From positions 1 through 51,941 of the forward strand of contig JAGRGB010000199.1 in assembly GCA_020445745.1 (NCBI GenBank): DNA of 51,941 nucleotides. Reading direction: 5' to 3'. Shown piece by piece: positions 934 to 17,285 of the stretch. This stretch comes from Rhodocyclaceae bacterium. Its GTDB lineage: Bacteria > Pseudomonadota > Gammaproteobacteria > Burkholderiales > Rhodocyclaceae. Every line of letters starts with the position of its first letter. Positions within the stretch are counted from its first letter, which is position 1. The notes beneath the pieces are model-generated. The model made no database searches. It was not told the origin of the DNA and was given only the letters and a program-made list of their open reading frames with translations. The position numbers were made by a program, and so were the translations under genes.

Positions 934-3063
934 TCACTTGGCCGCGGGCTGCACTGCGATCGACCACCTTCTCAGCTTGCCGACGTCGAGTGCCGAGAGG
1001 TCGGCCACCTGCAATGTCCATTGGCCGGCGATCTTCGCGCCGAGAAGCGGCGCGAGCGCCGAGTCGAAGGACGATTCCCACTCGCGACTCAGATCGTCGC
1101 CGCTGGCGCCAGAGCGGTCGTACAGAACCGCACGGCGCCCGTCCGGGGCGGTCAGGACCACTTGCAGGTCGCCGACGTACGTGTGGTCGATATCGATGGC
1201 GACCTTGATGCTGCCGGCTTCGCCATCACCCTTGAGTTCGATCGCGTCGGCGATGCCAGCCGGGCTGTTGTCGGGAATCGCGATGTCCGGGCTCGATTGT
1301 GCGCTTGCCGCGGAATCCGCCTCGCGCGCGGGAACTGCAGCCGCTTCCAGCGCCGCCTCCAGATTGATCACCGGTCTGGCGCCCTCGCCGGCCGGTTTCG
1401 CGGAATCCTTCAGCAGCGCAACCACGCGTTCGGGTCGCATGCCGGGATGCTCGGCGACGAGCCGCGCAGCGATGCCTGCGGCCAGCGCCGCCGAGTAGGT
1501 CGTCCCTTCGCGGGTATCGATGCGGTCGCCCGGGCGCACCGGGATCATCTCGCCCGGCGCCCACAGGACGCTGCTTCCCTGCTGGGTGAAGGCCGACGGC
1601 CTGCCCTTGCGATCCACCGAGGCGACGACCAGGATTCGCGACGCGAGAGCGCTGCGATCGAAAGGTGGCGGCTCGCCGCGCTCGTTGCCCGCCGGCAGAA
1701 CGACGAGGATCTTCTCGGACGCCAGTTTCCCTAGCACGTTCTGGTAGATGCCTCCCCGCAGCGGGCCGACCGTGATCAACAGGATGTCCGGCCTCGCCGC
1801 CGCGAGGGCGTTGAGTTCGGCCAGCAGGTGGGAGTCGGAATAGAGCCCGTCGCTGGTGGCCGACGGCGCGAAGATGTACCGGGCCTGGGGGGCGACGAGA
1901 TCCACCGCCTGCACGACCGTGCGCACGTACTCGGCCATCATCGGATCGGCCGCCTTCGCCCTGCCGTCACCCGCGACCTCGTAGCGGGCCTCGTCGAGTG
2001 TGCCGCTGCTCGGCAGGCCCCCGAGAACGCCGACTCGAACGGTGCCGGGCATTTCGAGACCGGCGACGCCCAGCGCCGCGAGCAGCCAGTCGCTCCTCGG
2101 CGGCGCGGCAGGCCTGGTCGGGGCACCGGATGGCTGCGGCCCCGGCGCCGTTGCGAGCAGGCGATCCGACAGGTACGCGATCCGCTTTTCGATGTCTGGA
2201 CGCAACGCGGAACCGGGTTCCAGCAGGTCGAGCGCCTCGCGATACCGCGTCAACGCCCGCTCCGTCTTGCCGCCTCGATCGCCGAGCCGTGCGGCAAACT
2301 GCACGAGCTCCTTCCAGCGGGGCGCACGGACGACGAGCTTGTCGATGCGTTCGAAAAGCTCGGCGAACTCCGCTTCCGCCGCGCGACCCCAGACGACCTG
2401 GCGATTGAGTTCGGCCGCCTGCGCGAAGGTCGCCAGCAGGTCCTCGAACTCGTGCACGGTCAGGGCGTCGACCTCGGGCACGCGGCTCGCGACCTGCTGC
2501 TGTGTCAGCGCGTGGGCGGCGGCCGATGCGATCCGCTCGGTGGGGATCGGCCTAGTCGCATCGCCGGTGATCTCGATCCACAGCGTGTCCTTTCCCTCGT
2601 TCCAGGAACCCGAAACCACCGCCCGGCCGTTCGCGTTCTCGACGGTCAGCCGCAGCGCGTTTTCGCCAGCCAGGGTGCGATGAAGCCAGGTGAGCAGGCC
2701 GCCCACCTCGACGCCGCCGACCTTCATCTCGATGTTCAGCGGCTCGAACAGCGCGGTGGGAAGTTCGACCGCACCCGCCTCGCCGATGTCCTGCGGGCGG
2801 GGCGCGTCGCTCAGGGGGGCGCGCAGCTGCTCCAGCGTCGTCGCCATCTCCTTGCGAATCCTGCCGAGCCTGCCGAGGAGCATGCCCGCCAGGGCCTGTC
2901 CGGCCTTGGCGTCCTCCACGCCCGCCAGATGCACCGGAGCGATCGTGTCGGGCAACTCGCGGACCGAGAACGACGAGATCGCCAGGCGGACGAACCAGAC
3001 GTTGACCGCCACCAGCAGGGACGCCCCGGCGAGGAAGGCGGCGATCTTCACCAGCAGTTCCAT
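934..3063 (-). CDS. Membrane-anchored subtilisin-fold pseudoprotease with C-terminal P-domain, 709 aa
   Basis: Residues 1-30 form a hydrophobic membrane anchor. Residues about 60-330 are a helical region of unknown family. About 340-575 have the S8 subtilisin layout, including VRVGVLGG, the oxyanion motif PAGN (457-460) and GTTYSAALAAG (520-530). About 590-709 are a proprotein-convertase P-domain (DNSPAG, DHTYVGDLQV, GQWTLQVAD). Against family consensus the catalytic positions look lost: Asp in the VAVLDTG strand is Gly, no HGTxVAG histidine is visible where expected, and the GTS serine is Thr. It is therefore probably a non-catalytic scaffold or binding protein. The start at 3063 is supported by AAAGGAGG about ten bases upstream; an earlier in-frame ATG at 3093 lacks this. 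No operon partner is evident. Confidence 0.8.
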   Translation of the reverse strand: MELLVKIAAFLAGASLLVAVNVWFVRLAISSFSVRELPDTIAPVHLAGVEDAKAGQALAGMLLGRLGRIRKEMATTLEQLRAPLSDAPRPQDIGEAGAVELPTALFEPLNIEMKVGGVEVGGLLTWLHRTLAGENALRLTVENANGRAVVSGSWNEGKDTLWIEITGDATRPIPTERIASAAAHALTQQQVASRVPEVDALTVHEFEDLLATFAQAAELNRQVVWGRAAEAEFAELFERIDKLVVRAPRWKELVQFAARLGDRGGKTERALTRYREALDLLEPGSALRPDIEKRIAYLSDRLLATAPGPQPSGAPTRPAAPPRSDWLLAALGVAGLEMPGTVRVGVLGGLPSSGTLDEARYEVAGDGRAKAADPMMAEYVRTVVQAVDLVAPQARYIFAPSATSDGLYSDSHLLAELNALAAARPDILLITVGPLRGGIYQNVLGKLASEKILVVLPAGNERGEPPPFDRSALASRILVVASVDRKGRPSAFTQQGSSVLWAPGEMIPVRPGDRIDTREGTTYSAALAAGIAARLVAEHPGMRPERVVALLKDSAKPAGEGARPVINLEAALEAAAVPAREADSAASAQSSPDIAIPDNSPAGIADAIELKGDGEAGSIKVAIDIDHTYVGDLQVVLTAPDGRRAVLYDRSGASGDDLSREWESSFDSALAPLLGAKIAGQWTLQVADLSALDVGKLRRWSIAVQPAAK

Positions 3064-3319
3064 GGTCGCAGCCCCTCCTTTCGACGCCATCACTGTGAAC
3101 GGGCGCGGCCGACAAGCTCAATGTCTTGGCGGCCCGATGCAGCTCGCGATCGTCCGCATAGTGCACTTCGACGACCACGTCGAGGACCGAACGCGTCGGC
3201 ACGCGGGGCGCGAAACCGCGTCCCGCGCACGGGCAGCATCAAGGACCGCCCGCCGAGCACGCCCAGAATGGTCGATGGAAGTTTTCGCACCGGGTCTCAT
3301 GAAGGAAGGATACGGACAA

Positions 3320-3813: not shown

Positions 3814-4725
3814 TCAGACGATGCCGGCGAAATGGACCGCGGTGACAAGGGCCGCGAGAGCCAGGCTGATCATGACGGTTCGTTGCTTGCCGGCGATCTC
3901 GGCCCTGTGGGCGGCTTCCCCGCCCTTGATCAAGCGCAGAGGTTCGAGGGTGCTGTTCGGCCCGGGGCCGATTCCGTTCTTGTCCGCGCAATAAATGCCG
4001 GACATCAGGAAGGTTTCGCCCTCTGCGATGACCATTTCGAGCAGCATGTTGTCCTGGGTGACGGAATCCCTGTCTTTCGCGCAGGTGTCTTTGCGAAAGT
4101 GGCCTGGTTCGACGTACGTCTCCTTGGTCCTCGCTTCACTGCCGGCATTCATCCGGTCGTTGAACTCAGCACCGAAATCGATCTTCGCGAGGTACTGGCG
4201 GAGGCGTTCCTTGGCCGCGTCGCCCTCGATCCTGTCGCCATCCACGGTGGCGAGGTGAGGTTTCAGGATCAGGAATTCGATGTCGTCGGTTTCGGCAAGA
4301 ATGAATGCTGTCTTCGTCGTCCCTCTGATCACCGAAGGCGTCATCGCGTAGCCGCGAAAGTCGGTGATCCACCCGGAACGCGCCTTGCGGACCACCTTGT
4401 AGCGGTAGGCCGCGCACCGCGTTCCGGTGCACGGTGATTCCAGTGGCGTCTCCTTGGCCTTTATCCGGCCGGAAACGACGGCCCGCTTGCCGTCTTCGAA
4501 TTTCATCTGGCGGGCGATGGCGAGTTCGGCTCTCATGCGACGGATGACAAGCCATTTGTTGAGCGCCAGCCATGTGAACGAACCCGCGACGAATGCAGCC
4601 CCCATGGCCTCGGTTGTCCCGAACACGAAGGTCGGGAGTGGTTCGCGCAGCGAGAATACGGAATAGAAAAAGACGAAGGAGCCCAACGGAAAGACGAGCA
4701 ACCTCAGGACCAGACTTGTCGCCAT
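3814..4725 (-). CDS. GIDE-like membrane protein, 303 aa
   Basis: Two hydrophobic segments near the N-terminus (about residues 3-25 and 35-55) and one at the extreme C-terminus (about 280-300) predict a membrane protein with a large soluble domain between them. The central stretch VVSGRIKAKETPLESPCTG, followed by AAYRYKVVRK, resembles the GIDE/BAM domain of mitochondrial MUL1-type ligases and their bacterial relatives. No RING or other catalytic domain is visible. The ATG at 4725 has AGGTGA seven bases upstream; the frame stays open upstream but the extension is Arg/Pro-rich and unlikely to be translated. The gene stands alone, and its function in bacteria is not established. Confidence 0.65.
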   Translation of the reverse strand: MATSLVLRLLVFPLGSFVFFYSVFSLREPLPTFVFGTTEAMGAAFVAGSFTWLALNKWLVIRRMRAELAIARQMKFEDGKRAVVSGRIKAKETPLESPCTGTRCAAYRYKVVRKARSGWITDFRGYAMTPSVIRGTTKTAFILAETDDIEFLILKPHLATVDGDRIEGDAAKERLRQYLAKIDFGAEFNDRMNAGSEARTKETYVEPGHFRKDTCAKDRDSVTQDNMLLEMVIAEGETFLMSGIYCADKNGIGPGPNSTLEPLRLIKGGEAAHRAEIAGKQRTVMISLALAALVTAVHFAGIV

Positions 4726-6921: not shown

Positions 6922-8511
6922 CTAGGGCCGGGCGCCGGACGGCGGCTCGGCAGGCGGGCGCTGCAGGCGTTCGCGCAGCACGTTCTTCTGGACCTTGCCG
7001 GTGGCGGTCTTCGGCAGCGCGCCGAAGACGACCTTCTTCGGTGCCTTGAAGCGCGCCAGGCGGGCGCGCACTTGGTCGATCAGCTCGTCCGCGGAGACGC
7101 TCGCGCCATCGTGGAGGTGGACGAAGGCGACCGGGATCTCGCCCCACTTGTCGTCGGGCGCCGCGACCACCGCGGCCTCCAGCACGGCGGCGTGGCTGGC
7201 CAGCACCTGCTCGACCTCGACCGACGAGATGTTCTCGCCGCCAGAGATGATGATGTCCTTGGCGCGGTCGCGCAGCTCAATGTAGCCGTCCAGATGCATC
7301 ACGCCGAGGTCGCCGGTCCGGAACCAGCCGTCGGGGCAGGCCTTTTCGGTCGCCGCGTCGTCCCGGTAGTAGCCGAGCATCAGGTTGTTGCCGCGGATCG
7401 CGATCTCGCCCAGGGTGCTGGCGTCCGCCGCGACGTCGCCGCCGTGCTCGTCGACGACCCGGACCTGCTGCGAGACGATGTTGCCGACCCCCTGGCGGGC
7501 CTTGAGCCGGGCCTGTTCGGGAATCGGCAGCCGGCGCCAGTCGCTGCGCCACTCGCACAGCACGGACGGGCCGTAGGTCTCAGTGAGGCCGTAGAGGTGG
7601 CTGATCTCCATGCCGAGCTCGGCCAGGCGCTCGAGCAGCGCCGGCGTCGGTGGCGCCCCGCCGGTGGCGATCTGCACCGGCCGCGCCGGCCTGCCGCGGG
7701 CGGATTCCGGATCCCAGATGGTCATAGTCAGCACCGTTGGGGCGGCGCAGAAGTGGGTCACGCCGGAATCGCGCATGTGCTGCCAGATCAGCCCCGGCTC
7801 CAGCCGCGGCAGGCACAGGTGCAGGCCGCCGGCGGCGGTCACCGCCCACGGGAAGCACCAGCCGTTGCAGTGGAACATCGGCAAGGTCCACAGATACACC
7901 GAGTCGCTGTCGAGCCGCATGTGGTGGGCCATCGCCAGCGACTGCAGATAGGCGCCGCGGTGGTGGTACATGACCCCCTTGGGCCGGGCCGTGGTGCCGC
8001 TGGTGTAGTTGATCGCCAGCAGCCCGCGTTCGTCGTCGACCGCCACCGAATAGGGCTCGGCCTGCTCGATCAGCGCCTCGAGCCGGTCGTCGTCGCCGCC
8101 GGCGCAGACCAGCCGGGGCCGGCCCGCGGCCTGTGCCGCCGCCTGCTGCGCGACGCTGGCCAGCGTGTCGTCATGGAGCAGGACCGCGGATCCCGAGTGA
8201 TCGAGGATGTAGGCCACGTCGCCGGCCGTGATGCGTGTATTCAGGGCCACCAGCACCGCACCGGCGAACGGCGCGGCGTAGTGGGCGGCCAGCATCACGT
8301 GGGTGTTTCCGGCCAGCACGGCGACCCGGTCGCCGGGTGCGACGCCCATCGCCTGCAGCGCACCGGCGAACTTCAGGCAGCGTTGCAGGAATTGGGCGTA
8401 GCTGAATCGCCGTTCGCCGTCCGCCACGCCGATCCGGTCGCCATGGACCACCGCGGCCCGGCGCAGGAAGGCCGTCGGGGTGAGGGCCTCGAAGTTGAAC
8501 GAGCTGTCCAT
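6922..8511 (-). CDS. AMP-dependent acyl-CoA synthetase (fatty-acid CoA ligase), 529 aa
   Basis: A complete ANL-superfamily adenylating enzyme that activates a carboxylic acid with ATP and CoA. The P-loop-like motif is INYTSGTTARPKGVMYHH, followed by the A5 region SHLYGLTETYGP, the hinge ELRDRAKDIIISGGENISS and the C-terminal lysine motif PKTATGKVQK. Overall similarity is to medium/long-chain fatty-acid CoA ligases of the AlkK type; the substrate cannot be fixed from sequence alone. The start ATG at 8511 is preceded by GGAGGAGGAG. A long upstream in-frame extension lacks family similarity. The PaaI thioesterase follows on the same strand. Confidence 0.9.
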   Translation of the reverse strand: MDSSFNFEALTPTAFLRRAAVVHGDRIGVADGERRFSYAQFLQRCLKFAGALQAMGVAPGDRVAVLAGNTHVMLAAHYAAPFAGAVLVALNTRITAGDVAYILDHSGSAVLLHDDTLASVAQQAAAQAAGRPRLVCAGGDDDRLEALIEQAEPYSVAVDDERGLLAINYTSGTTARPKGVMYHHRGAYLQSLAMAHHMRLDSDSVYLWTLPMFHCNGWCFPWAVTAAGGLHLCLPRLEPGLIWQHMRDSGVTHFCAAPTVLTMTIWDPESARGRPARPVQIATGGAPPTPALLERLAELGMEISHLYGLTETYGPSVLCEWRSDWRRLPIPEQARLKARQGVGNIVSQQVRVVDEHGGDVAADASTLGEIAIRGNNLMLGYYRDDAATEKACPDGWFRTGDLGVMHLDGYIELRDRAKDIIISGGENISSVEVEQVLASHAAVLEAAVVAAPDDKWGEIPVAFVHLHDGASVSADELIDQVRARLARFKAPKKVVFGALPKTATGKVQKNVLRERLQRPPAEPPSGARP

Positions 8512-8875
8512 GGTCGATTCTCCTCCTCCGCGCCGCGGCGCCGGCCTCGTCACGACCGCCGCCGGGGCTTCGCCGGAAGCGGCCGGCGGAATCTTCGGAG
8601 CGGCTTCCCCGGCCTGGTCGGCCAGTAGCGCGCCGCGCTGCGGCCTCCCCTTCAATCTTGTGCCTGGTCGAGCCCCTGTCAAGCCGGCGGCTGCCCGCAC
8701 CTTGCACAGACGGGCAGGGGCAGAGGCTCACCGCCCGCCACGATGCCCGCACGTGCCGGGCGCGCCGCCGGCGGCGTGCGAATCGGTCGCCGCTCGGATG
8801 CGGCGGCCAATCGTCGCGCCGGCCGTTGCGACGGCCAGCCGAGATCAGGAAATGTTCTGCCCCCGGGGCGGTAGC
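8512..8875. other. Intergenic gap, no gene seen
   Basis: About 360 bp between the TIR gene's end and the acyl-CoA synthetase start. It contains the synthetase ribosome-binding site next to 8512. No other ORF with family resemblance or plausible ribosome-binding site was seen. Confidence 0.5.
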
Positions 8876-9823
8876 TCAGCGGGCGCCGGTGATCGAATAC
8901 AGTTCCGTGTAGGGCTCGGCTTCGCTCATCCGGTAACCCACCTGGCGCGTGTGCAGGTCGAGCTGGATATCCACGCCCCGGCCTTCGTCGAACAGATACA
9001 CCGACCATTCGTCGCGGCCGACTTCACGGAAAGTGAAGCTGCGCTGGTTGCCGGCATCGAACTCGGCCCACTCGCCCGGTGCGACCTGGGTGAAATAGCC
9101 GCTCGGCTCGCCGGCCAGGCCGACGTAGTCGACTTGGTGCACATTGGCGCCATCGACCCCGGCGCGAACGCCGACGTCGCCCTGGGCCGGCGCGACTGGT
9201 TCGTCGACCGGTGGCGGGGCCTCGTCGGGACCGCCGAGCAGCGCCAGGGCACCGATGCCCACCGCGACCACCGCCAGCACGGCCAGCACCTTCTTGATGC
9301 CGCCACCGCGACGGCCAGTGCTCGCGGCCGGCGCCCCGGTGGCGCCGTCACCGGTCTCCAGCGGCGTGACGTAGCGGGCGAGCGCGGTGGCCATCACGCC
9401 GAGATCCGACTCCCAGCGGGCGTGGGTGAGCTCGACCGCGTTGCGGAACGCGAGATCGGAAAGGTCGTCCGGCAGCTGCTCGGCCGGCGGCATGCGTGCC
9501 CCCTGCACCAGTACCGGGATCACAGGGATGCCACGCTTCAGCGCCGCGGCGATCTCGAGCCGGACGAAATCGTGGGCCTGGTCGATCCGCCGGGCCCCGT
9601 CGTCGCCGGCGGCGGAGAGCCATTGCCGGCCGATCAGCGCCAGCAGCACGTCGCACTTGGTGATCTTGGCATCGATCACCTGCCGGAAATCGACCCCGGG
9701 CTCGATCGCGACGACGTCCATGAACACCGAGTCCTCGCCGAAGCGCGCCCGCAGCCCTTCGAACAGACGTCCGGCGTGACCCTCGGTGTCTTCGCGCCGA
9801 TAACTGATGAAGATCGCACTCAT
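8876..9823 (-). CDS. TIR-domain protein with transmembrane anchor, 315 aa
   Basis: Residues 1-150 are a bacterial TIR domain: start AIFISYRREDTEGHAGRLFE, VFMDV at 33-37, and DFVRLEIAAAL with the putative catalytic glutamate E90. TIR domains of this type often cleave NAD or serve as signalling modules. A Gly-rich linker leads to one transmembrane helix (about 177-197), a Pro-rich spacer, then about 100 residues of unknown fold (GEWAEFDAG, SFTFREVGRDEWSVYLFD). By topology rules the TIR domain should be cytoplasmic and the C-terminal domain periplasmic, as in a sensor. It lies 210 bp downstream of the TIR/methyltransferase operon on the same strand and may belong to it. Confidence 0.85.
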   Translation of the reverse strand: MSAIFISYRREDTEGHAGRLFEGLRARFGEDSVFMDVVAIEPGVDFRQVIDAKITKCDVLLALIGRQWLSAAGDDGARRIDQAHDFVRLEIAAALKRGIPVIPVLVQGARMPPAEQLPDDLSDLAFRNAVELTHARWESDLGVMATALARYVTPLETGDGATGAPAASTGRRGGGIKKVLAVLAVVAVGIGALALLGGPDEAPPPVDEPVAPAQGDVGVRAGVDGANVHQVDYVGLAGEPSGYFTQVAPGEWAEFDAGNQRSFTFREVGRDEWSVYLFDEGRGVDIQLDLHTRQVGYRMSEAEPYTELYSITGAR

Positions 9824-10033
9824 CGACAGCCTCCCCAGAGCGTGCGGTTCCCTGCCACCTTAGCGGTATTTGTCGCGTTCGGGGGGCCGGCATGCAAGCC
9901 GGGCATCGGCTCGCCGTGCGGGTTGACGGAGGCTCGACCGGAATTGCCGCCGAGCCCCGGCGCAGGGATTGGCGCGGCTGGTGGGCGCCGCTGCCGCAAG
10001 CGCCTCCCCGAAGCAGCGCCCTTGCCGGGCGCG

Positions 10034-11008
10034 CTAGCCGCCGGCACCGCGCCGTTGGGCCAGCAGCAGGACCTGGCCACCGGCCTGCCCTCCGAATTGG
10101 TGCCGGATACGAAAGCCGGCCGACTCGAGGAAGAGCGCGAACGCATGGCCCTGAAATTTCCCGGAGCTGCTCATCCTGATCGAGTCCCCTCGCCGGAAGG
10201 CGAACCTGGCGCCGCCGACGCTCACGGTCGATGTCTCGACGAACTCGAAACATTTCTCGACCAGGGCCAGACCCGGCACGGTCGCGGATGTGCCGAGGCG
10301 GAAATGAACATCTCCCGCGCTGTCGTCCAGGCCGAGCGCACGGAGGGGGGCCAGCGCGAAGCGTCGGTTGGTCGGATTGTCGTACTGCGGCAAGGTATCG
10401 CGTTCCGAGAACTGGTGGGCGTCGATCAGCAGATAGTCCTGGTCTTCGGTCAGGCGGCGAAGCAGGCGCAGGGTGTCGCCGGGGTCCCAGGCGCCGATGT
10501 TGCCGCCCAGCAGCAGGCACAGGCGCGCACGCTGTCGGTCGAGCATGCGGCCCGCTTCCCGACAATGGGCGTCCCGGAGCAGGTCGGCGCGGATGCCCCG
10601 TGCCGGGTAGCCCGATTCGATCGCCGCGGCGCAGGCTCCGGCGAGCAGCGGGTAGCTGGCGTCGATGGCCGTGTAGCGCGGCCGCCGCCCGGTGCTTGCC
10701 AGGGCGCGCAGAAGCCGCAGGTCCTTGGCGCCGTCCCCGGCGCCGAGGCTGACCACCTCGATCGGACGATCGGGCAGGGCGGATGCAATCGTCTGCGCGT
10801 GGGCGTCGACGAGCGCGAAACTCCGGGCGTAGCCGCGATAGGCGCTGCTCGAACACAGCTCGGTCCACGCCCTCACTGACGGCCCCGACTGATAGAAGTG
10901 CAGCTCGGGCAGGCGCCTTTCGCGCAGGGCGGCCAGCAAGGCCTGATCACAGTCGTGCCGCGACAGCAGTTCCGTGAGCGTGGCCGGCGGCCGCTCGGCC
11001 CGGTTCAC
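10034..11008 (-). CDS. EgtD-like SAM-dependent methyltransferase (Methyltransf_33), 324 aa
   Basis: The protein matches the EgtD-like family (PF10017), whose best-known member trimethylates histidine for ergothioneine. Visible features are the SAM loop VVSLGAGDGAKD, YTAIDASYPLL, the family signature LLLGGNIGAWDPGDTL, and YDNPTNRRFALAPL. No EgtB, EgtC or EgtE gene is nearby, so ergothioneine synthesis is not supported. The GTG start at 11008 overlaps the stop of the TIR gene (GTGA), implying translational coupling. No other start lies at this junction; the frame extends upstream only in the shadow of the TIR gene. The methyl acceptor is unknown: it could be an amino acid, a nucleotide-derived signal or a protein. 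Confidence 0.8.
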   Translation of the reverse strand: MNRAERPPATLTELLSRHDCDQALLAALRERRLPELHFYQSGPSVRAWTELCSSSAYRGYARSFALVDAHAQTIASALPDRPIEVVSLGAGDGAKDLRLLRALASTGRRPRYTAIDASYPLLAGACAAAIESGYPARGIRADLLRDAHCREAGRMLDRQRARLCLLLGGNIGAWDPGDTLRLLRRLTEDQDYLLIDAHQFSERDTLPQYDNPTNRRFALAPLRALGLDDSAGDVHFRLGTSATVPGLALVEKCFEFVETSTVSVGGARFAFRRGDSIRMSSSGKFQGHAFALFLESAGFRIRHQFGGQAGGQVLLLAQRRGAGG

Positions 11009-12024
11009 GGTGCGGGCTGCGGAACGGAAATGCGGATTCCGTCGTCGGTGAGGGCCGAATCGAACGGAATGAACAGGAACTCGAACTGGCGGCAGCGACG
11101 AGACGGCACCTTCCTGACCCATTGCAGCATCGGCGCATAGATCCCGCCGCGCGCCGCGCGCATGATCTTCCAGGCGTTGGTCGGGAACTGGCCGGCGTCG
11201 GCCTCGGCCATCTGCCGGCCCATCGACCCGAGCCATGCCTCGTCGGCGCCCGAAGCGAGTCGTCGCCAGATCTTGACGAGCGTCGCGAACTTCTCCTCCG
11301 GCGGCACATCGGCCATGCCGAACAGGCTTGCGGCGACCCAGTCGATCTGGCGCACGGTGCATTCCGCGAGCACCGGCAGCCAGTCCGTCGACGGGTCGTC
11401 ACTGTCGGGCATGGGGGCCTCGATCGGCAGCTCGAGGCGGAGGTAGGGCAGCGCCGGCCAGTCGTCGGTGCCCTGCCATTCGTAATCGGGAATGACTTCC
11501 TTCAGCCCGGCGCGGAGCTGCTCGGTCGCCAGCTCGATCTCCTTGCATTCCGGAGGAAGATTGGGTGCGATCGGGCCGTGCCCGGGGAAGAAGTTGCTGC
11601 GTGTCAGGAAGTCGATGACGAAGCCCTGCAGGCTCTTGCTGTTGGAGAGGTCGACGCGGACGGTGTCCTGGAACGGGGCCGGAACGTCACGCGCGCATTG
11701 CAGCACGACGATGCGGGTCTCGTCGTTCATCGATACGCCGCACTCCCACATGCAATAGGACCAGTCCTGGTCGGCGGTCGTATAGATCAGGACGATCGCG
11801 CGTGATTGCTGCAGCCTGGTGCGCAGCTCCTCGTTGAGGTTCTCGCCGATCAGGGGCCCCGAACCGGCCGCCGAGGACTGGAAGACCTCGACATCCCGCC
11901 GCGTCACCCGCTCCACCCATTCCTTCAGGACCGTCGCGATGCGTTCATCCGCATGTCGATGACTGATGAACAGCTTCGGCCGGGAACGCTGGCCGCGGTC
12001 GCCGGTATCTCGTTCGGATGACAT
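11005..12024 (-). CDS. TIR-domain protein with unknown C-terminal region, 339 aa
   Basis: After a short charged leader, residues 16-140 form a TIR-like domain: PKLFISHRHADERIA, VEVFQSS, AIVLIYTTADQDWSYCMWECG. Glu94 sits where TIR NADases have their catalytic glutamate (pattern W-S-x-C-x-x-E). Residues about 150-339 are a soluble domain with no family I recognise; a hydrophobic patch FEFLFIPFDSAL lies near the end. No signal peptide or membrane helix is seen. It is the first gene of a coupled operon with the EgtD-like methyltransferase and is read in the same direction as the TIR-TM gene further on. A role in stress or phage-triggered signalling is inference. Confidence 0.8.
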   Translation of the reverse strand: MSSERDTGDRGQRSRPKLFISHRHADERIATVLKEWVERVTRRDVEVFQSSAAGSGPLIGENLNEELRTRLQQSRAIVLIYTTADQDWSYCMWECGVSMNDETRIVVLQCARDVPAPFQDTVRVDLSNSKSLQGFVIDFLTRSNFFPGHGPIAPNLPPECKEIELATEQLRAGLKEVIPDYEWQGTDDWPALPYLRLELPIEAPMPDSDDPSTDWLPVLAECTVRQIDWVAASLFGMADVPPEEKFATLVKIWRRLASGADEAWLGSMGRQMAEADAGQFPTNAWKIMRAARGGIYAPMLQWVRKVPSRRCRQFEFLFIPFDSALTDDGIRISVPQPAP

Positions 12025-12399
12025 GCCTTTCGAATTCCCCCTGGCTCGCAGCGGCGTTGCCCGATCGCGGATTCACTAGCATTGCAGCAGGCCGCCAGGG
12101 AAACCGCAACTGCGGCGGCCGCCGAGGCGACGCGGCAATCATCGAGGTGCGGGCAGTCCGCCGGCGCGACATCGGAGCGGGGGGGGGCTGGCCGTGACGA
12201 TCTCCGACGGCCCTCGTCGTGCGGGCGATCCGCATCAATGGCGAGACGAGCCGCGGCCTGCAGAGAGGCCGCGTGATTCCTGGTCCGGGCGGAGGACGGA
12301 CGCCCGGGTCGGCCGGCGGCGGTTTCCCGATCACTTTCGATTCCGGATGGCGCTTGCGATTCCCCATGCCGCTTGCGCCATCGGCGATGCAATGGGCGA
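12025..12399. other. Intergenic gap with a G-run
   Basis: About 375 bp between the start of the TIR operon and the end of the SnoaL-like gene. It should hold the TIR operon promoter. A run of G residues lies near 12180. No coding region recognised. Confidence 0.5.
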
Positions 12400-12810
12400 C
12401 TACGCCGACAGGCCCAGTTGTCGCGCGATGCCGGCCTCGTCGACGACACCCCAGTGCTCGGCGATGCGCCCGTCCCGCATCCGCACGATGTCGATCGCCT
12501 CGACGGAGAAGGTCCTGCCGCTGGGCGCCGCCCCCATGAATTCGCCGAGATGCGTGCCGCTCATGGTGCAGTGACCGACGACCAGGTCGCCCTCGACAAC
12601 GGTACGCTCCAGCACCATGCGCAGGTCCGGAAAGCTGCTGCGCAGCTCTGCCAGGCCGGCCTTGAAGCCTGCGACCGTCGCCGGCTGATCGGGCCACGGG
12701 GCGTGGTCGACCAGGGACGGCTCGAAATAGCCGTCGGCCGCTTCGGTGTCGCCACGGTTGAAGACGACCTCGATGAAATCCGACAAGGCGTCATGATTGG
12801 TTCCTGCCAT
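12400..12810 (-). CDS. SnoaL-like ester cyclase-fold protein, 136 aa
   Basis: A small alpha+beta-barrel protein of the SnoaL/NTF2 fold. Typical family phrases are DFIEVVFNRGDTEAADGYFEP, LVDHAP, GLAELRSSFPDLRMVLE and VRMRDGRIAEHWGVVDE. Members act as polyketide cyclases, isomerases or simple ligand-binding proteins, so the substrate cannot be told. The start at 12810 is preceded by AAGGAGAG. The LysR regulator is transcribed divergently 147 bp away, the classic arrangement for a regulator and its target. Confidence 0.85.
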   Translation of the reverse strand: MAGTNHDALSDFIEVVFNRGDTEAADGYFEPSLVDHAPWPDQPATVAGFKAGLAELRSSFPDLRMVLERTVVEGDLVVGHCTMSGTHLGEFMGAAPSGRTFSVEAIDIVRMRDGRIAEHWGVVDEAGIARQLGLSA

Positions 12811-12957
12811 CGCAGCTCTCCTTGGGTTGGCGCCACCGCCGGGGTGGCCGGTGTTGGCATTGGTGCCACTGTCGCCGATCGACGGGACCACTCTACGTCC
12901 GCAGATCAGTGCAAAAAAAGAGGTATAGACGCAGCCCGATCCTGCAAGAATGCAGGT

Positions 12958-13839
12958 ATGAACTGGGACGATCTGCGCTATGTGCTCGCCGTGGCCAGGC
13001 AAAGGACCCTGGCCGGGGCGGGTCGGGAACTCGGCGTCGATCCGACCACGGTCGGCCGTCGTCTGCTGGCCATCGAAGGCCAGCTCGGGGCGCGCTTGTT
13101 CGAACGCACCGGCGAGGGCTTCACGGCGAACGCCGCCGGGCAGATCGCCGTGGCTCGCGCGGCCGAGGTCGAGCTGCAGACCTCGGCACTCGAGCGCGAA
13201 CTCCAGGGCAACGACAGCAGGGTGGCGGGGCCGGTGCGCATCACGGCGCTCGATGTCCTGCTCGACAACTTCGTCATTCCCCGCCTGCCGCGACTGTGGC
13301 AGCGGCACCGTGGGCTGGAGCTGACCCTGGTCTCGGGACTGCGGGTGCTGGATCTGTCCCGTCACGAGGCAGACATCGCCATCCGCGCCATCAAGCCGAC
13401 CCACCCCGACGCGATCGCGCGCCGACTGGGCTCCGTCGCCACGGCTGCCTATGTGTCCCGCGCCGTCGAACTCGGCGATGCGCCGCCACTGGTCGGCTTT
13501 CCGCGGGATCTCGACGATACGGCGATCGACCGGGCCCTGCGCGAGCATTTTCCGAGCGGCCGCCTGGTCGCCCGCGCCAACACCGAGGGCCACGTGCTGG
13601 AACTCGTGCGGGCCGGCGTCGGGGTTGGGCTGGTCGATTGTTTCGCCGGCGATGCCGACCCGGGCCTGCGACGCGCGCGACTTCAGCCGGTGCTGCAATC
13701 CGAGATGTGGGCCGTCGTGCACGCTGACATGCGTGGTACTGCACGCGTGCGTGCGGTGATGGACTTTCTCACCGAGATCATCGCCGAGGAGGCCGACCTG
13801 CTGGAAGGGCGGCGGCCGACCGACCACGGCCGTCCTTGA
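12958..13839 (+). CDS. LysR-family transcriptional regulator, 293 aa
   Basis: The N-terminal winged helix-turn-helix runs from about residue 3 to 60 (WDDLRYVLAVARQRTLAGAG, VDPTTVGRRLLAIEGQLGARLF). About 90-285 is a LysR substrate-binding domain with the signature LSRHEADIAIRAIKPTHPDA. Length is normal for the family. The ATG at 12958 fits the conserved MNWDDLRYVL start. It is divergent from the SnoaL-like gene and probably controls it in response to a small effector; the effector is unknown. Confidence 0.9.
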   Translation: MNWDDLRYVLAVARQRTLAGAGRELGVDPTTVGRRLLAIEGQLGARLFERTGEGFTANAAGQIAVARAAEVELQTSALERELQGNDSRVAGPVRITALDVLLDNFVIPRLPRLWQRHRGLELTLVSGLRVLDLSRHEADIAIRAIKPTHPDAIARRLGSVATAAYVSRAVELGDAPPLVGFPRDLDDTAIDRALREHFPSGRLVARANTEGHVLELVRAGVGVGLVDCFAGDADPGLRRARLQPVLQSEMWAVVHADMRGTARVRAVMDFLTEIIAEEADLLEGRRPTDHGRP

Positions 13840-14178
13840 GCCGATTGCTCGGCATCTGCAACCACGTTGCGGACGCCGCCATGGGCCGAGGGTCGCAGTT
13901 CCACGGGCGCAGTCGTGCGACGAAGATGTCGCCGGCGCGGACCGAGGCGGTCGCGACGGGGCCGAGTGCTCACTGCAATAGGTCACCGAGCTACCCGCGT
14001 TGCGACACCGTGCGATCCACGGAGCTGATCGAGGGCTCCGGCCGGTGGACCCGCCAAGGAATCCAGCGTATCGTCCAAAAAATCAGTTGGCATCGCACCG
14101 CGTCGCGAATGATTAACAAACCGTGCCATAAATTTAATTGATCCGAATTGCACGAGGTTTCCAGATCTGGGAGTCTGA
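13840..14178. other. Intergenic gap, AT-richer at its right end
   Basis: About 340 bp between the LysR gene and the two-gene unit at 14179. Base composition drops towards AT around 14100-14150, consistent with a promoter for the downstream pair and possibly acquired DNA. No gene recognised. Confidence 0.45.
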
Positions 14179-14613
14179 ATGATCGAACGGGTCGCCGTGG
14201 CAGGGGGGCGAATCAACGCGCACGTCGGTGAGCGCAATATCGGGAGCATCGCGATCGGCGATGTCGCCCGATTGGTCGTCACCCGATTTGCGTCGGGGCT
14301 CTATCATGGCGAGGAGCCGTTTGTGGTTCTCGAAGACGAGCAGCAGGCGCTGGTCGTCCCATACGGCGTGGCCGGCATGCGCCAGCTGAGTGACGCGCTG
14401 GTGGCCACGTATGGCGGATCGAAGATGCTGTGGCTGGCCGAGTGCGAGGGCCTGCCGATGGCGTGGCGCAAGAGATTCCTGGGCCTCTTTCCTTTGTTTC
14501 CAATACCCAGGCTCGCAGTGCATCCGCGCGCGTCAGTGCCGCACTGGAATGAGCAGGGGCCGTTGCCGATGTCCGCCTTGCCGACGTCTATTGGAGAACA
14601 TTCCAATGTCTGA
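14179..14613 (+). CDS. Unrecognised protein, candidate partner of the toxin-like gene, 144 aa
   Basis: I do not recognise a family. The sequence opens MIERVAVAGGRINAHVGERN, is mixed alpha/beta in character and has one weakly hydrophobic Pro-rich stretch (FLGLFPLFPIPRLAVHP) near residue 100. A GGGAG ribosome-binding site precedes the ATG. The end overlaps the next gene by eight bases, so the two are co-translated. Because the second protein looks like a membrane-active effector, this one could be its chaperone, adaptor or immunity protein; that is inference. Confidence 0.6.
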   Translation: MIERVAVAGGRINAHVGERNIGSIAIGDVARLVVTRFASGLYHGEEPFVVLEDEQQALVVPYGVAGMRQLSDALVATYGGSKMLWLAECEGLPMAWRKRFLGLFPLFPIPRLAVHPRASVPHWNEQGPLPMSALPTSIGEHSNV

Positions 14614-15520
14614 ATACTGCGGGGAAGTCTCGTTCGCCGATCCGGCGCCGCTGACCTGTACTGAACCGAGTGACGGATTCCTGTGTTCGCTGCCGGCCGC
14701 GGATCCTGGCGAGGCCGTCGAATTTCTGGAGATCGTCGGCAGCGGTGGTGCCCTGGGCACAGGGGCACGCATGACCCGCATGGGAATCAGCATGCCGGTA
14801 ATCCGCGAGGAATACGAGGCCGCGGTCAGGAAGCTGGTGGCAGAAGTGGCGCGGCGCAAGCGATCGGGGCAGTCATTGGAGGCCATCGCCCGTTTTGCGG
14901 TGGAGGAAAGGACGCGGATCGCCAATCGCATGCGATGGCGTAGCGGGGCGGGCACCCGGATCCTGTTCGAAGTCCGGGACTGGTCGGAGTTCGGCCCCGG
15001 GGGCCGTACCTATCGGAACGTGGAAGCCCGCTACGTCGGTCGCGGCTATCAAGGCAGTGCGCTCCATCAAAAGATGATCGCCGGCGCGACCCATCCCAAC
15101 GCCGGTATCTCGAATACCGCGCTTCGCGGCGCGCGATACCTGCGCAATGGCGGTCGCGTGATCGTCGTGCTGTCATTTGCATCGACCGCATACGTCTTGT
15201 TAACGACGCCCGAAGAGCAGTTGCCCAGGGTGCTCTCCCAGGAGGCCGGCTCCTTTCTCGGGGGTGCCGCCGGCAGCGGCGCCGCCGTCGGGGCCTGCCT
15301 GGTATTCGGAATCGCCACCGGAGGTTGGGGCCTGCTGGCGTGCGGAATCGTCGGCGGCATTGCCGGGGGCGCGGTCGGCGACTGGGCCGGTGATCGCGTC
15401 TATTCTTCGCTATCTCCGAACGTCGAAGAGAGCGTACGGGCCACGGGCATGCTCGATGTCAATGAACTCATCATCGATGGGCCCGATGCGCCCATGTGCG
15501 TCGCCCCGCTGACGCGATGA
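14606..15520 (+). CDS. Candidate membrane-active effector with glycine-zipper helices, 304 aa
   Basis: Residues 1-60 are soluble and Cys-containing; 60-180 are charged and helical (REEYEAAVRKLVAEVARRK, AIARFAVEERTRIANRM). About 184-200 and 216-256 are hydrophobic and rich in Gly/Ala (SFLGGAAGSGAAVGACLV, GIVGGIAGGAVGDWAGD). This glycine-zipper pattern is common in pore-forming or membrane-inserting bacterial toxins, including some type VI effectors, but I recognise no named family. No signal peptide is visible and no secretion genes are nearby. The ATG at 14606 lies inside the end of the preceding gene (8-bp overlap). Other possibilities include a prophage or colicin-like lysis protein. Confidence 0.55.
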   Translation: MSEYCGEVSFADPAPLTCTEPSDGFLCSLPAADPGEAVEFLEIVGSGGALGTGARMTRMGISMPVIREEYEAAVRKLVAEVARRKRSGQSLEAIARFAVEERTRIANRMRWRSGAGTRILFEVRDWSEFGPGGRTYRNVEARYVGRGYQGSALHQKMIAGATHPNAGISNTALRGARYLRNGGRVIVVLSFASTAYVLLTTPEEQLPRVLSQEAGSFLGGAAGSGAAVGACLVFGIATGGWGLLACGIVGGIAGGAVGDWAGDRVYSSLSPNVEESVRATGMLDVNELIIDGPDAPMCVAPLTR

Positions 15521-15845
15521 CCCGTGCCGGCGCGGGAAGCAGCCTTGCTCGACGGTTCTCGCGATCGCGATGAACATCACGCCGCTGCGCGCATGTCGGC
15601 GACGCAAGGTCGACTCTTCAGCGCGCCCCTGATGGTCCCAGGGCATCTTCGCCAACATCATCCATATCGACGACATGCTGGATGCGTGAGCGGTCGCAGT
15701 CGCCATGTCCCGCAACTGCCGGAGGCACCGCGCGGCCTGACGCGGCAAGCGCAGCGGCAGGCGGGCACCGCCGTCGCCCGGAGGGAAGACATCCGAGCTC
15801 GATCCTCCCCTCGAGGGCAGGTGCCCGCCGAGTCACGCGACGCCG
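15521..15845. other. Intergenic gap between converging genes
   Basis: About 325 bp. A short + strand stretch ending near 15690 reads WSQGIFANIIHIDDMLDA before a stop and may be the tail of a decayed gene, but a stop lies directly in front of it. No intact gene or clear terminator was seen. Confidence 0.4.
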
Positions 15846-16679
15846 TCAAGGGCAATGACGCCGCGTCCTGCGCAATGCAAGCAGTCCGATCGCGATCAAG
15901 CCGATCGTCACCGGTTCCGGCGCCCGCTGCACCTCTGCCGCCGTGTAAAAGACGTCTGAAAACGCTTGCCCGATAAGAAGCATGAGGTCGCCATCGGAAA
16001 GCACCGCACTCAGCGATATCGTGCCGCTGTCGGAATCCGAGTCACTGCCGCCTAAGGGTAGCCTTGCGGAGCTGGTCAAGGTGGAAACCGCTGCCGCTTC
16101 ATCAACCAGATCCGGATCGAGGAGGATGCCGTTTGCATTGGACAGGTTGTTGAGCGTCAGGACCGATGAGGCAAATGCCGTTCCTTGGTCGCCTCCGGTG
16201 TTTGACGCAGCCGTGTTCCGCGTAAAATCGACCGAAATCGTGATGCTGCCACTGCCGGACACTTGAAAGGTGAAGTCTCTCTGTGAGCCACCTTGGGCGC
16301 GAAGCCCTTCGGAAAATGTTCCGGTCATCGACGCGGCGCCGGTCATCGAATCGCCCACGATTTGACTGGATCCCGAGAGGTCGAGACCGCCGGCGACAAA
16401 CGATGAACTCGAGCTGAGGTCGGTCGCCCAGTCCGCAGCAAATTGCGAATCCGAGTCGGTGATTCCGATCGAATCACGGCGCGTGGATGACGTCGCGTGA
16501 CTTACCCTGCTGACCGGGATGAGTGACATGCCGGGGTCGAGGTCGAACCTCAGTGTGCTCCAGTCGAACGTGCTGGTCGCACCGAGCACGACACTGCCGA
16601 ATACGCTTCCTGATTCGATCATCAGAATCCACAGGACGATGAAGCCGAACAGTCTTGGACCGCCTCCCTTCGCTTTCAT
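15846..16679 (-). CDS. PEP-CTERM sorting-signal protein, 277 aa
   Basis: The protein has an N-terminal hydrophobic signal (FGFIVLWILMIESGSVFG), a Ser/Thr/Gly-rich low-complexity body, and a C-terminal PEP-CTERM tag: APEPVTIGLIAIGLLALRR followed by basic residues. Such proteins are exported, cleaved at the tag by an exosortase (EpsH/XrtA family) and delivered to the surface or matrix. No exosortase is encoded in this window. The start at 16679 is preceded by AAGGAG. An FNR/Dnr-type palindrome lies about 205 bp upstream of the start (see 16876-16893). Confidence 0.85.
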   Translation of the reverse strand: MKAKGGGPRLFGFIVLWILMIESGSVFGSVVLGATSTFDWSTLRFDLDPGMSLIPVSRVSHATSSTRRDSIGITDSDSQFAADWATDLSSSSSFVAGGLDLSGSSQIVGDSMTGAASMTGTFSEGLRAQGGSQRDFTFQVSGSGSITISVDFTRNTAASNTGGDQGTAFASSVLTLNNLSNANGILLDPDLVDEAAAVSTLTSSARLPLGGSDSDSDSGTISLSAVLSDGDLMLLIGQAFSDVFYTAAEVQRAPEPVTIGLIAIGLLALRRTRRHCP

Positions 16680-17285
16680 TGATCTTCTCCTTGTCGCACG
16701 TCGGGACCGAGTCGGGCGCCCCGGATGGGCCTTCGGACATGTCGGGAATGACAATCGTCACGAGCGCCATCGGAAATCACGCATTTGGCGTGCCAGGGTC
16801 GAAACCGCCGAAATCACGCGCAGATTCTTCGCCTCGGGAGCCGAATGTAAATAAATCCGACGCAGATCGGGTGAAAATTGACTGAAGTCAATTCCCGGTG
16901 TAAAGAATTTCGACGCTTGGCGGCCGGCAAGATTTCTTCCCCACAAACACCTTGAAATGCAAGAAATATCGAGAGAGGTTGTGCCGTGATTTATTCAAAT
17001 CACTTCGAGGGGCCAGGGATTCCGACGGTCGCAGGCCGTGCCCACGGACCAGCGTCGCGTTCGCGTCGGTTCTTGCCACAAGGCTTCGTGCAGGGCTTCC
17101 GATCGTCGGTCGACGGCGACGGACGGTGGATCCGGGGCGGCGTCGAATGCGCGGTGTCGGCCAGTTCGGGACCTTCCGTCACCATTGCGTTCGCATTGTT
17201 CGCTCGGCTCGGCGGCGGATGGACTAATGTAGGGAGGCAGCCCCGCTCCTGACAACGACCTACTCTCTCCAATGGAGGCGACATC
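16680..17285. other. Divergent intergenic region between PEP-CTERM gene and cytochrome P460
   Basis: A 606-bp region that must drive both genes. It is AT-richer around 16840-16990 and includes the AATTGAC-TGAA-GTCAATT palindrome. No gene with family resemblance found. Confidence 0.5.
16876..16893. promoter_or_regulatory. FNR/Dnr-type binding site
   Basis: AATTGACTGAAGTCAATT is a perfect palindrome with 7-bp arms. Its core TTGAC-N4-GTCAA has the same form as the site in front of nirS in this window. It lies about 205 bp upstream of the PEP-CTERM gene (minus strand) and about 400 bp upstream of cytochrome P460, so the PEP-CTERM gene is the likelier target. Confidence 0.5.

What the first reader, a model, noticed from the sequence alone, without database searches (positions are those of the whole stretch)
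10034..12024. TIR protein translationally coupled to an EgtD-like methyltransferase
A TIR-domain protein with a preserved catalytic-type glutamate (Glu94) and an unassigned 190-residue C-terminal domain overlaps by four bases (GTGA) an EgtD-family methyltransferase. No ergothioneine genes (EgtB, C or E) are present, so the methyltransferase probably has another acceptor. TIR domains act in bacterial immunity by making or destroying NAD-derived signals; a dedicated methyltransferase could modify a signal, a target or the TIR protein. I know of no characterised two-gene system of this kind.
Basis: partly seen in the sequence, partly recalled or inferred. Interest (0 to 1): 0.75.

Follow-up and report, generated by a model that had tools for sequence, protein, structure and literature searches.

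The report
TIR gene coupled to retuned methyltransferase
In one bacterial genome an immune-type TIR gene overlaps a gene for a methyltransferase of the ergothioneine family that lacks two substrate-binding residues kept by its relatives; the TIR protein has distant relatives with other partners, but the pairing itself was found only here.

Summary
A TIR protein (TIR1, 339 aa) and a PF10017 methyltransferase (MT, 324 aa) share a four-base overlap (GTGA) on the minus strand. The MT is not EgtD: 62.9 bits against a 290.9 cut-off. In 46 of 46 homologues examined, Asn (EgtD Asn166) and Glu (EgtD Glu282) are present; here they are Ala173 and Ser280. The carboxylate-site Tyr, Tyr and Ser and the SAM motif are kept. 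It is the genome's only PF10017 match, and none of 10 FGE-domain proteins scanned there is an EgtB; one is OvoA. So 'another acceptor' is supported. A conserved two-gene system is not: 0 of 5 genus-mates have either gene, 0 of 46 MT-homologue loci hold a TIR1 relative, and 0 of 11 TIR1-relative loci hold an MT. TIR1 with its unassigned C-terminal domain does recur in Nitrosomonadales, Chitinophagaceae, Methanophagales and Actinobacteria; two of those loci have conflict-type neighbours (SLATT two-TM; TPR-S, TIR-PASTA, caspase). Most likely TIR1 is an SpbK/ThsB-like NADase-type conflict protein and MT a lineage-specific, co-translated accessory enzyme acting on a small molecule. Its function is inferred, not shown.

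The parts
11005..12024 (-). TIR1, 339 aa TIR-domain protein (ATG start)
   Evidence: TIR_2 30.8 bits; PADLOC spbK 1.4e-6, ThsB 2.7e-4
11602..11976 (-). TIR domain, about residues 17-141; catalytic-type Glu94 codon at 11743-11745
   Evidence: Glu94 invariant in 10 of 10 aligned sequences; codon place; AlphaFold2 model
11008..11577 (-). TIR1 C-terminal domain, about residues 150-339, family-specific, no Pfam or usable solved relative found
   Evidence: conserved in L049-L053 (Leu199, Phe235, Trp264 invariant in the 9-sequence set); no C-terminal match and none usable in 87
10034..11008 (-). MT, 324 aa PF10017 methyltransferase, GTG start overlapping the TIR1 stop by 4 bases
   Evidence: 7.5e-23; EgtD fold, TM 0.76
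10490..10492 (-). Ala173 of MT, where 46 of 46 homologues have Asn (EgtD Asn166)
10253..10255 (-). Lys252 of MT, where 40 of 46 homologues have Met (EgtD Met252)
10169..10171 (-). Ser280 of MT, where 46 of 46 homologues have Glu (EgtD Glu282)
8876..9823 (-). TIR2, 315 aa TIR protein with a predicted membrane segment (my reading); a genus gene that also occurs without TIR1 and MT, so probably not part of the pair

Best explanation
TIR1 is a conflict/defence-type TIR enzyme of the SpbK/ThsB sort: an NAD-cleaving TIR domain followed by a C-terminal domain that probably senses a trigger or drives assembly. The MT is an EgtD-fold, SAM-dependent small-molecule methyltransferase whose acceptor pocket has been changed: it keeps the carboxylate-binding side but lacks the Asn that holds histidine's amine and the Glu at a specificity position. 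It is made by translational coupling with TIR1 and most likely works as an accessory enzyme of the TIR reaction, methylating a TIR product or a released metabolite so as to tune or end the response. Shown by computation: the genes, the overlap, the predicted fold, the residue replacements, and the absence of the pair from what was searched. Inferred: NAD cleavage, role in immunity, functional coupling, the acceptor.
For: GTGA overlap. TIR1 is nearest to SpbK and ThsB models, as are its relatives L049-L053, and a profile of the family finds SpbK in the PDB (1.3e-5). Two TIR1-relative loci have conflict-type neighbours: a SLATT_1 two-TM protein in the Methanophagales contig L051, and TPR-S, TIR-PASTA and caspase genes in the Nitrosomonadales contig L049. 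MT keeps Tyr39, Tyr57, Tyr209, Ser282 and Gly89/Gly91, as do 46 of 46 homologues, so it is probably active, but has Ala173 and Ser280 where 46 of 46 have Asn and Glu. In EgtD, Tyr56, Tyr206 and Ser284 bind the carboxylate and Asn166 the amine (PMC8593015, passages), and the engineered M252V,E282A form was solved with tryptophan (4pip title). MT and TIR1 are both without a match in the 5 genus-mates, so they may have come and gone together.
Against: The pair was found in one genome only, so the overlap may be an accident of one lineage. None of 11 TIR1-relative loci has an MT, and other relatives stand alone among housekeeping-looking genes (L045, L046, my reading). The neighbourhood is not a defence island. 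Nothing identifies the acceptor, and no NADase activity is shown. TIR1's Pfam score is only just over the cut-off.
Confidence: 0.38

Rival explanations
1. Chance neighbours: MT is a retuned amino-acid N-methyltransferase (a betaine maker or similar) that landed behind TIR1 in a variable region; the overlap gives co-expression but no joint function.
For: The pair was seen in one genome only. Window 12100-17200 has only three matches of 102-146 bases in 2 of 5 genus-mates, and the TIR2-side conserved block ends at 9871-9875, so the two genes sit in a rearranged or inserted region. The replaced positions include both of those changed in the EgtD variant solved with tryptophan.
Against: A four-base overlap is typical of co-translated partners (general knowledge), and the MT has kept its other conserved residues.
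Confidence: 0.3
2. MT modifies the TIR1 protein (or its trigger) and keeps it off, like an immunity or antitoxin partner.
For: Order TIR1-MT with translational coupling fits an effector and its regulator.
Against: MT keeps the small-molecule carboxylate-binding residues of EgtD and an EgtD-like model over its whole length; I see no added peptide-binding segment. Relatives of TIR1 do without an MT nearby.
Confidence: 0.1
3. A three-gene TIR1-MT-TIR2 operon is the unit.
For: All three are on the minus strand within 3.2 kb; in the Nitrosomonadales contig L049 a TIR1 homologue (40%) is followed by a TIR2 homologue 138 bp later, and L054 also has a TIR2-like ORF next to a weak TIR1 match.
Against: TIR2 orthologues (81, 76 and 59% identity) occur in 3 of 5 genus-mates, which have no TIR1 or MT match; in two of them the shared block runs about 50 bp upstream of the TIR2 start, and the MT-TIR2 gap is 210 bp.
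Confidence: 0.12

Closest known systems
SpbK (TIR NADase of Bacillus subtilis phage defence)
   Same: The TIR domain of TIR1 is nearest to the spbK model and SpbK is the best PDB match of the family profile; catalytic-type Glu kept.
   Different: Only the TIR part of SpbK is matched; TIR1 has its TIR domain at the N-terminus and its own C-terminal domain, and carries an MT partner.
Thoeris (ThsB TIR with a ThsA effector)
   Same: Weak ThsB matches; a Thoeris system makes histidine-ADPR (told in PMC11204291, passages), which makes a histidine-type methyltransferase partner suggestive. The SLATT-like neighbour of the L051 relative has a weak ThsA match (8.7e-4).
   Different: No ThsA match beside TIR1; MT is not a Thoeris component.
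EgtD, histidine N-alpha-methyltransferase (TIGR03438)
   Same: Predicted fold over the whole length (TM 0.76 to 4uy7), SAM motif, carboxylate-binding Tyr/Tyr/Ser.
   Different: 62.9 bits against a cut-off of 290.9; Asn166 and Glu282 equivalents are Ala and Ser; no EgtB found.

Membership tests
EgtD (ergothioneine pathway) | score over the TIGR03438 cut-off | tested here: not met
   62.9 bits, cut-off 290.9. Of three homologues scanned for comparison two pass (416.0, 345.4) and one 234-residue stretch scores 196.7
EgtD (ergothioneine pathway) | Asn166 and Glu282 equivalents | tested here: not met
   Ala173 and Ser280; 46 of 46 homologues have Asn and Glu
EgtD (ergothioneine pathway) | EgtB in the same genome | tested here: not met
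   14 FGE-domain matches; 10 proteins scanned, EgtB model 48.9-175.7 bits against a cut-off of 360, the highest being OvoA. The match on C45 (with an inside stop) was not scanned; the other three short matches lie in or next to scanned proteins
PF10017 methyltransferases | over the Pfam cut-off with SAM motif | tested here: met
   81.5 bits, cut-off 23; Gly89 and Gly91 kept
TIR domain (PF13676) | over the Pfam cut-off | tested here: met
   30.8 bits, cut-off 28
TIR NADase | catalytic-type Glu | tested here: met
   Glu94 invariant in 10 of 10 aligned sequences
TIR NADase | cleaves NAD | not testable with these tools
   needs an assay
Thoeris | ThsB next to a ThsA effector | tested here: not met
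   no ThsA match for TIR1, MT, TIR2 or the 9 neighbours scanned
SpbK | full-length match to the spbK model | tested here: not met
   only model positions 140-229 of 308 matched

The most novel reading that the evidence does not exclude
MT methylates a TIR1-made or TIR1-released molecule: an amino-acid-ADP-ribose conjugate such as the histidine-ADPR of a Thoeris system (a pocket without Glu282 and Met252 might admit the ADP-ribose), or the freed nicotinamide (whose carboxamide could sit in the kept Tyr/Tyr/Ser site), blocking NAD salvage. I know of no methylation step in TIR signalling, so either would be new.
Probability: 0.12. Interest if true: 0.85.

Novelty: new variant of a known kind. Interest (0 to 1): 0.4.

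Why it matters
If the coupling is functional, it adds a methylation step to TIR-based immunity, which is known for making and destroying NAD-derived signals. Apart from that, the MT is a natural PF10017 enzyme altered at positions that set EgtD's substrate choice, so its acceptor is worth finding. The TIR1 family, with one conserved unassigned C-terminal domain in bacteria and an archaeon and with differing neighbours, is a candidate conflict-system component.

Tried and rejected
Tried without result: MT or TIR1 relatives in viral contigs, MT in plasmids, TIR1 in phages (MT was not sought in phages); TIR1 in plasmids gave one record, Acaryochloris; the genome-contig scan with MT alone (47 pattern matches, none a relative). 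Single-protein scans need an exact 8-residue stretch, so they say little about distant relatives. MT was sought in overlapping sets, each counting the own genome: 21 of 101 relatives match at 1e-3, 24 of 399 of the order at 1e-8, 1 of 398 of the phylum at 1e-13, 9 of 369 of the class at 1e-10; no foreign match exceeds 35% identity. TIR1: 3 of 101 relatives (1e-3), 1 of 274 class genomes (1e-6), 3 of 150 family genomes (1e-4).

Rejected: MT as true EgtD; TIR1-MT-TIR2 as the conserved unit; a defence island. The C-terminal domain of TIR1 gave no usable fold match: hits in PDB and the viral library are weak or have large rmsd (model pTM 0.51). Rfam and tRNA scans of the window were empty; no promoter-like site in 8700-12500. 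Paper searches (listings) showed me no TIR/EgtD-like pair; most subscription papers are not held.

The 46 homologues are the loci handed back by the searches; matches without a locus (one, four) and the partial match L067 were not included. L030 was left out of alignment A1 (its stated range held a stop) but is. The 'TIR near MT' tests used a TIR1-family profile and TIR2 within about 1.5 kb, less where contigs end (seven loci are under 2.8 kb), so another sort of TIR could be missed. Two of the 5 genus-mates are only 80-89% complete.

Full report
What is there. The window is a whole 51,941-base contig of a 4.88 Mb genome. On the minus strand lie TIR1 (11005-12024, 339 aa) and MT (10034-11008, 324 aa, GTG start), sharing the four bases GTGA. 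The MT frame is open further upstream, with ATGs at 11122, 11236 and 11362, but homologues align only from about residue 20-30, so the GTG is the likeliest start. TIR1 matches TIR_2 at 30.8 bits (cut-off 28) and MT matches PF10017 at 81.5 bits (cut-off 23). Nine neighbouring proteins were scanned: seven have a Pfam name (PF09720 addiction-module component, subtilase, thioesterase, AMP-binding ligase, SnoaL, LysR, cytochrome P460); none matched PADLOC.

The methyltransferase. It is the only PF10017 match in the genome. It is far from EgtD by score: 62.9 bits against a cut-off of 290.9. Of three homologues scanned for comparison, two pass (416.0 and 345.4 bits) and one 234-residue stretch scores 196.7. 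The AlphaFold2 model (mean pLDDT 72.9; only 11 sequences in the alignment) is EgtD-like over its whole length (TM 0.76 with 4uy7, 22% identity). Against 46 homologues from other genomes, MT has best identity 29.5% on that alignment (35% over the best local stretch), while each of the others has a neighbour at 41% or more. It keeps Tyr39, Tyr57, Gly89, Gly91, Asp116, Tyr209, Ser282 and Lys284. It has Ala173 where 46 of 46 have Asn, Ser280 where 46 of 46 have Glu, and Lys252 where 40 of 46 have Met. By motif these are EgtD Asn166, Glu282 and Met252 (EgtD chains aligned). In M. tuberculosis EgtD, Tyr56, Tyr206 and Ser284 bind the carboxylate and Asn166 the alpha-amine (PMC8593015, passages); the PDB title of 4pip names an engineered M252V,E282A variant in complex with tryptophan. 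So the enzyme probably binds SAM and a carboxylate- or carboxamide-bearing acceptor, but not histidine in the EgtD way. No EgtB was recognised: of 10 FGE-domain proteins scanned in this genome none reaches the EgtB cut-off of 360 (48.9 to 175.7 bits), and the best of them is a 715 aa OvoA (TIGR04344 686.1 bits). One interrupted match (C45) was not scanned.

The TIR protein. Its nearest models are SpbK and ThsB. A scan of the genome-contig collection with a two-sequence TIR1 alignment gave 56 pattern matches and 6 relatives, 5 of them matching both halves at 29-40% identity: Nitrosomonadales (L049), Chitinophagaceae (L050), Methanophagales (L051), Acidimicrobiia (L052), Ilumatobacter (L053). 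Glu94 is invariant in the 10 aligned sequences. The C-terminal domain is conserved but unassigned (model mean pLDDT 77.0, pTM 0.51). Three of the five have extra C-terminal residues: L049 about 200, and L052 and L053 a segment that they share; the L053 copy also matches a Thauera plasmid protein. Neighbours of relatives: in L051 a SLATT_1 two-TM protein; in L049 a TPR-S protein before, a TIR-PASTA protein and a caspase after; in Acaryochloris an FGE-domain gene. L045 and L046 show no such partner (my reading), and for L050 the contig ends soon after the gene.

Is the pair conserved? Not in what I could search. Of 5 genus-mates none has a match to MT or TIR1 (two of them are 80-89% complete). 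Of 46 MT-homologue loci none has a TIR1-family or TIR2-like ORF within about 1.5 kb. Of 11 TIR1-relative loci (L025, L045-L054) none holds an MT-like ORF. The genomes of L049-L053 hold at most weak MT matches (3 of 5 at E 0.1 or better, best 1.7e-4); the two that gave usable loci keep Asn and Glu.

Origin of the locus. TIR2 has full-length orthologues in 3 of 5 genus-mates (81, 76, 59%), genomes without TIR1 or MT matches. The block shared with two of them ends at window 9871-9875, just upstream of TIR2, and window 12100-17200 has only three matches of 102-146 bases in 2 of 5 genus-mates. TIR1-MT therefore lies in a species-specific, rearranged or inserted stretch. TIR1's third-position GC (0.85) is like that of its neighbours.

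How it most likely works. Inference: TIR1 is an NAD-cleaving conflict protein; MT, made by coupled translation, methylates a small molecule linked to that reaction. The histidine link is suggestive because a Thoeris system is reported to make histidine-ADPR (PMC11204291, passages, citing a preprint), but MT lacks EgtD's amine-binding Asn, which argues against a simple histidine substrate. Rivals are chance adjacency with an unrelated metabolic role, modification of TIR1 itself, and a three-gene unit. The evidence does not decide between the coupled accessory enzyme (0.38) and chance adjacency (0.3).

Novelty. TIR NADases and PF10017 enzymes are known kinds; I saw neither the combination nor the altered pocket in the listings of seven paper searches. 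I rate it a new variant of a known kind with moderate interest, held down by occurrence in a single genome.

Noticed in passing
G000:C152 (locus L095) 362-511, 4026-4175, 8242-8391, 8528-8677, 10643-10792; ORF 9147-10538: A likely diversity-generating retroelement in the same genome: one Asn-rich template copy (8528-8677) and four variable copies at the ends of FGE-domain proteins, among them a TIR-FGE, a SEFIR/TIR-nSTAND1-FGE and a DUF4062-FGE protein; mismatches fall on 17-21 of 30 template A's but on 10-12 of the other 120 bases, and the ORF beside it matches reverse transcriptase RVT_1.
   Followed up: partly
G000:C177 (locus L083) 1011-3158, minus: A full OvoA (5-histidylcysteine sulfoxide synthase with C-terminal methyltransferase domain): the genome looks ovothiol- rather than ergothioneine-making.
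   Followed up: yes
8876-9823: TIR2 belongs to a large TIR set in this genus: 25 matches over 6 genomes; two of those in this genome are TIR-FGE fusions (L075, L077).
   Followed up: partly
L051 3029-4553: In a Methanophagales archaeon a TIR1 relative is followed by a SLATT_1 two-TM gene: a possible TIR-plus-pore two-gene defence unit.
   Followed up: partly
L049 1121-7550: Nitrosomonadales contig with TPR-S, TIR1-relative, TIR-PASTA and caspase genes in a row on one strand.
   Followed up: partly
201-599: Short protein matching PF09720 (putative addiction module component, 50.1 bits).
   Followed up: no
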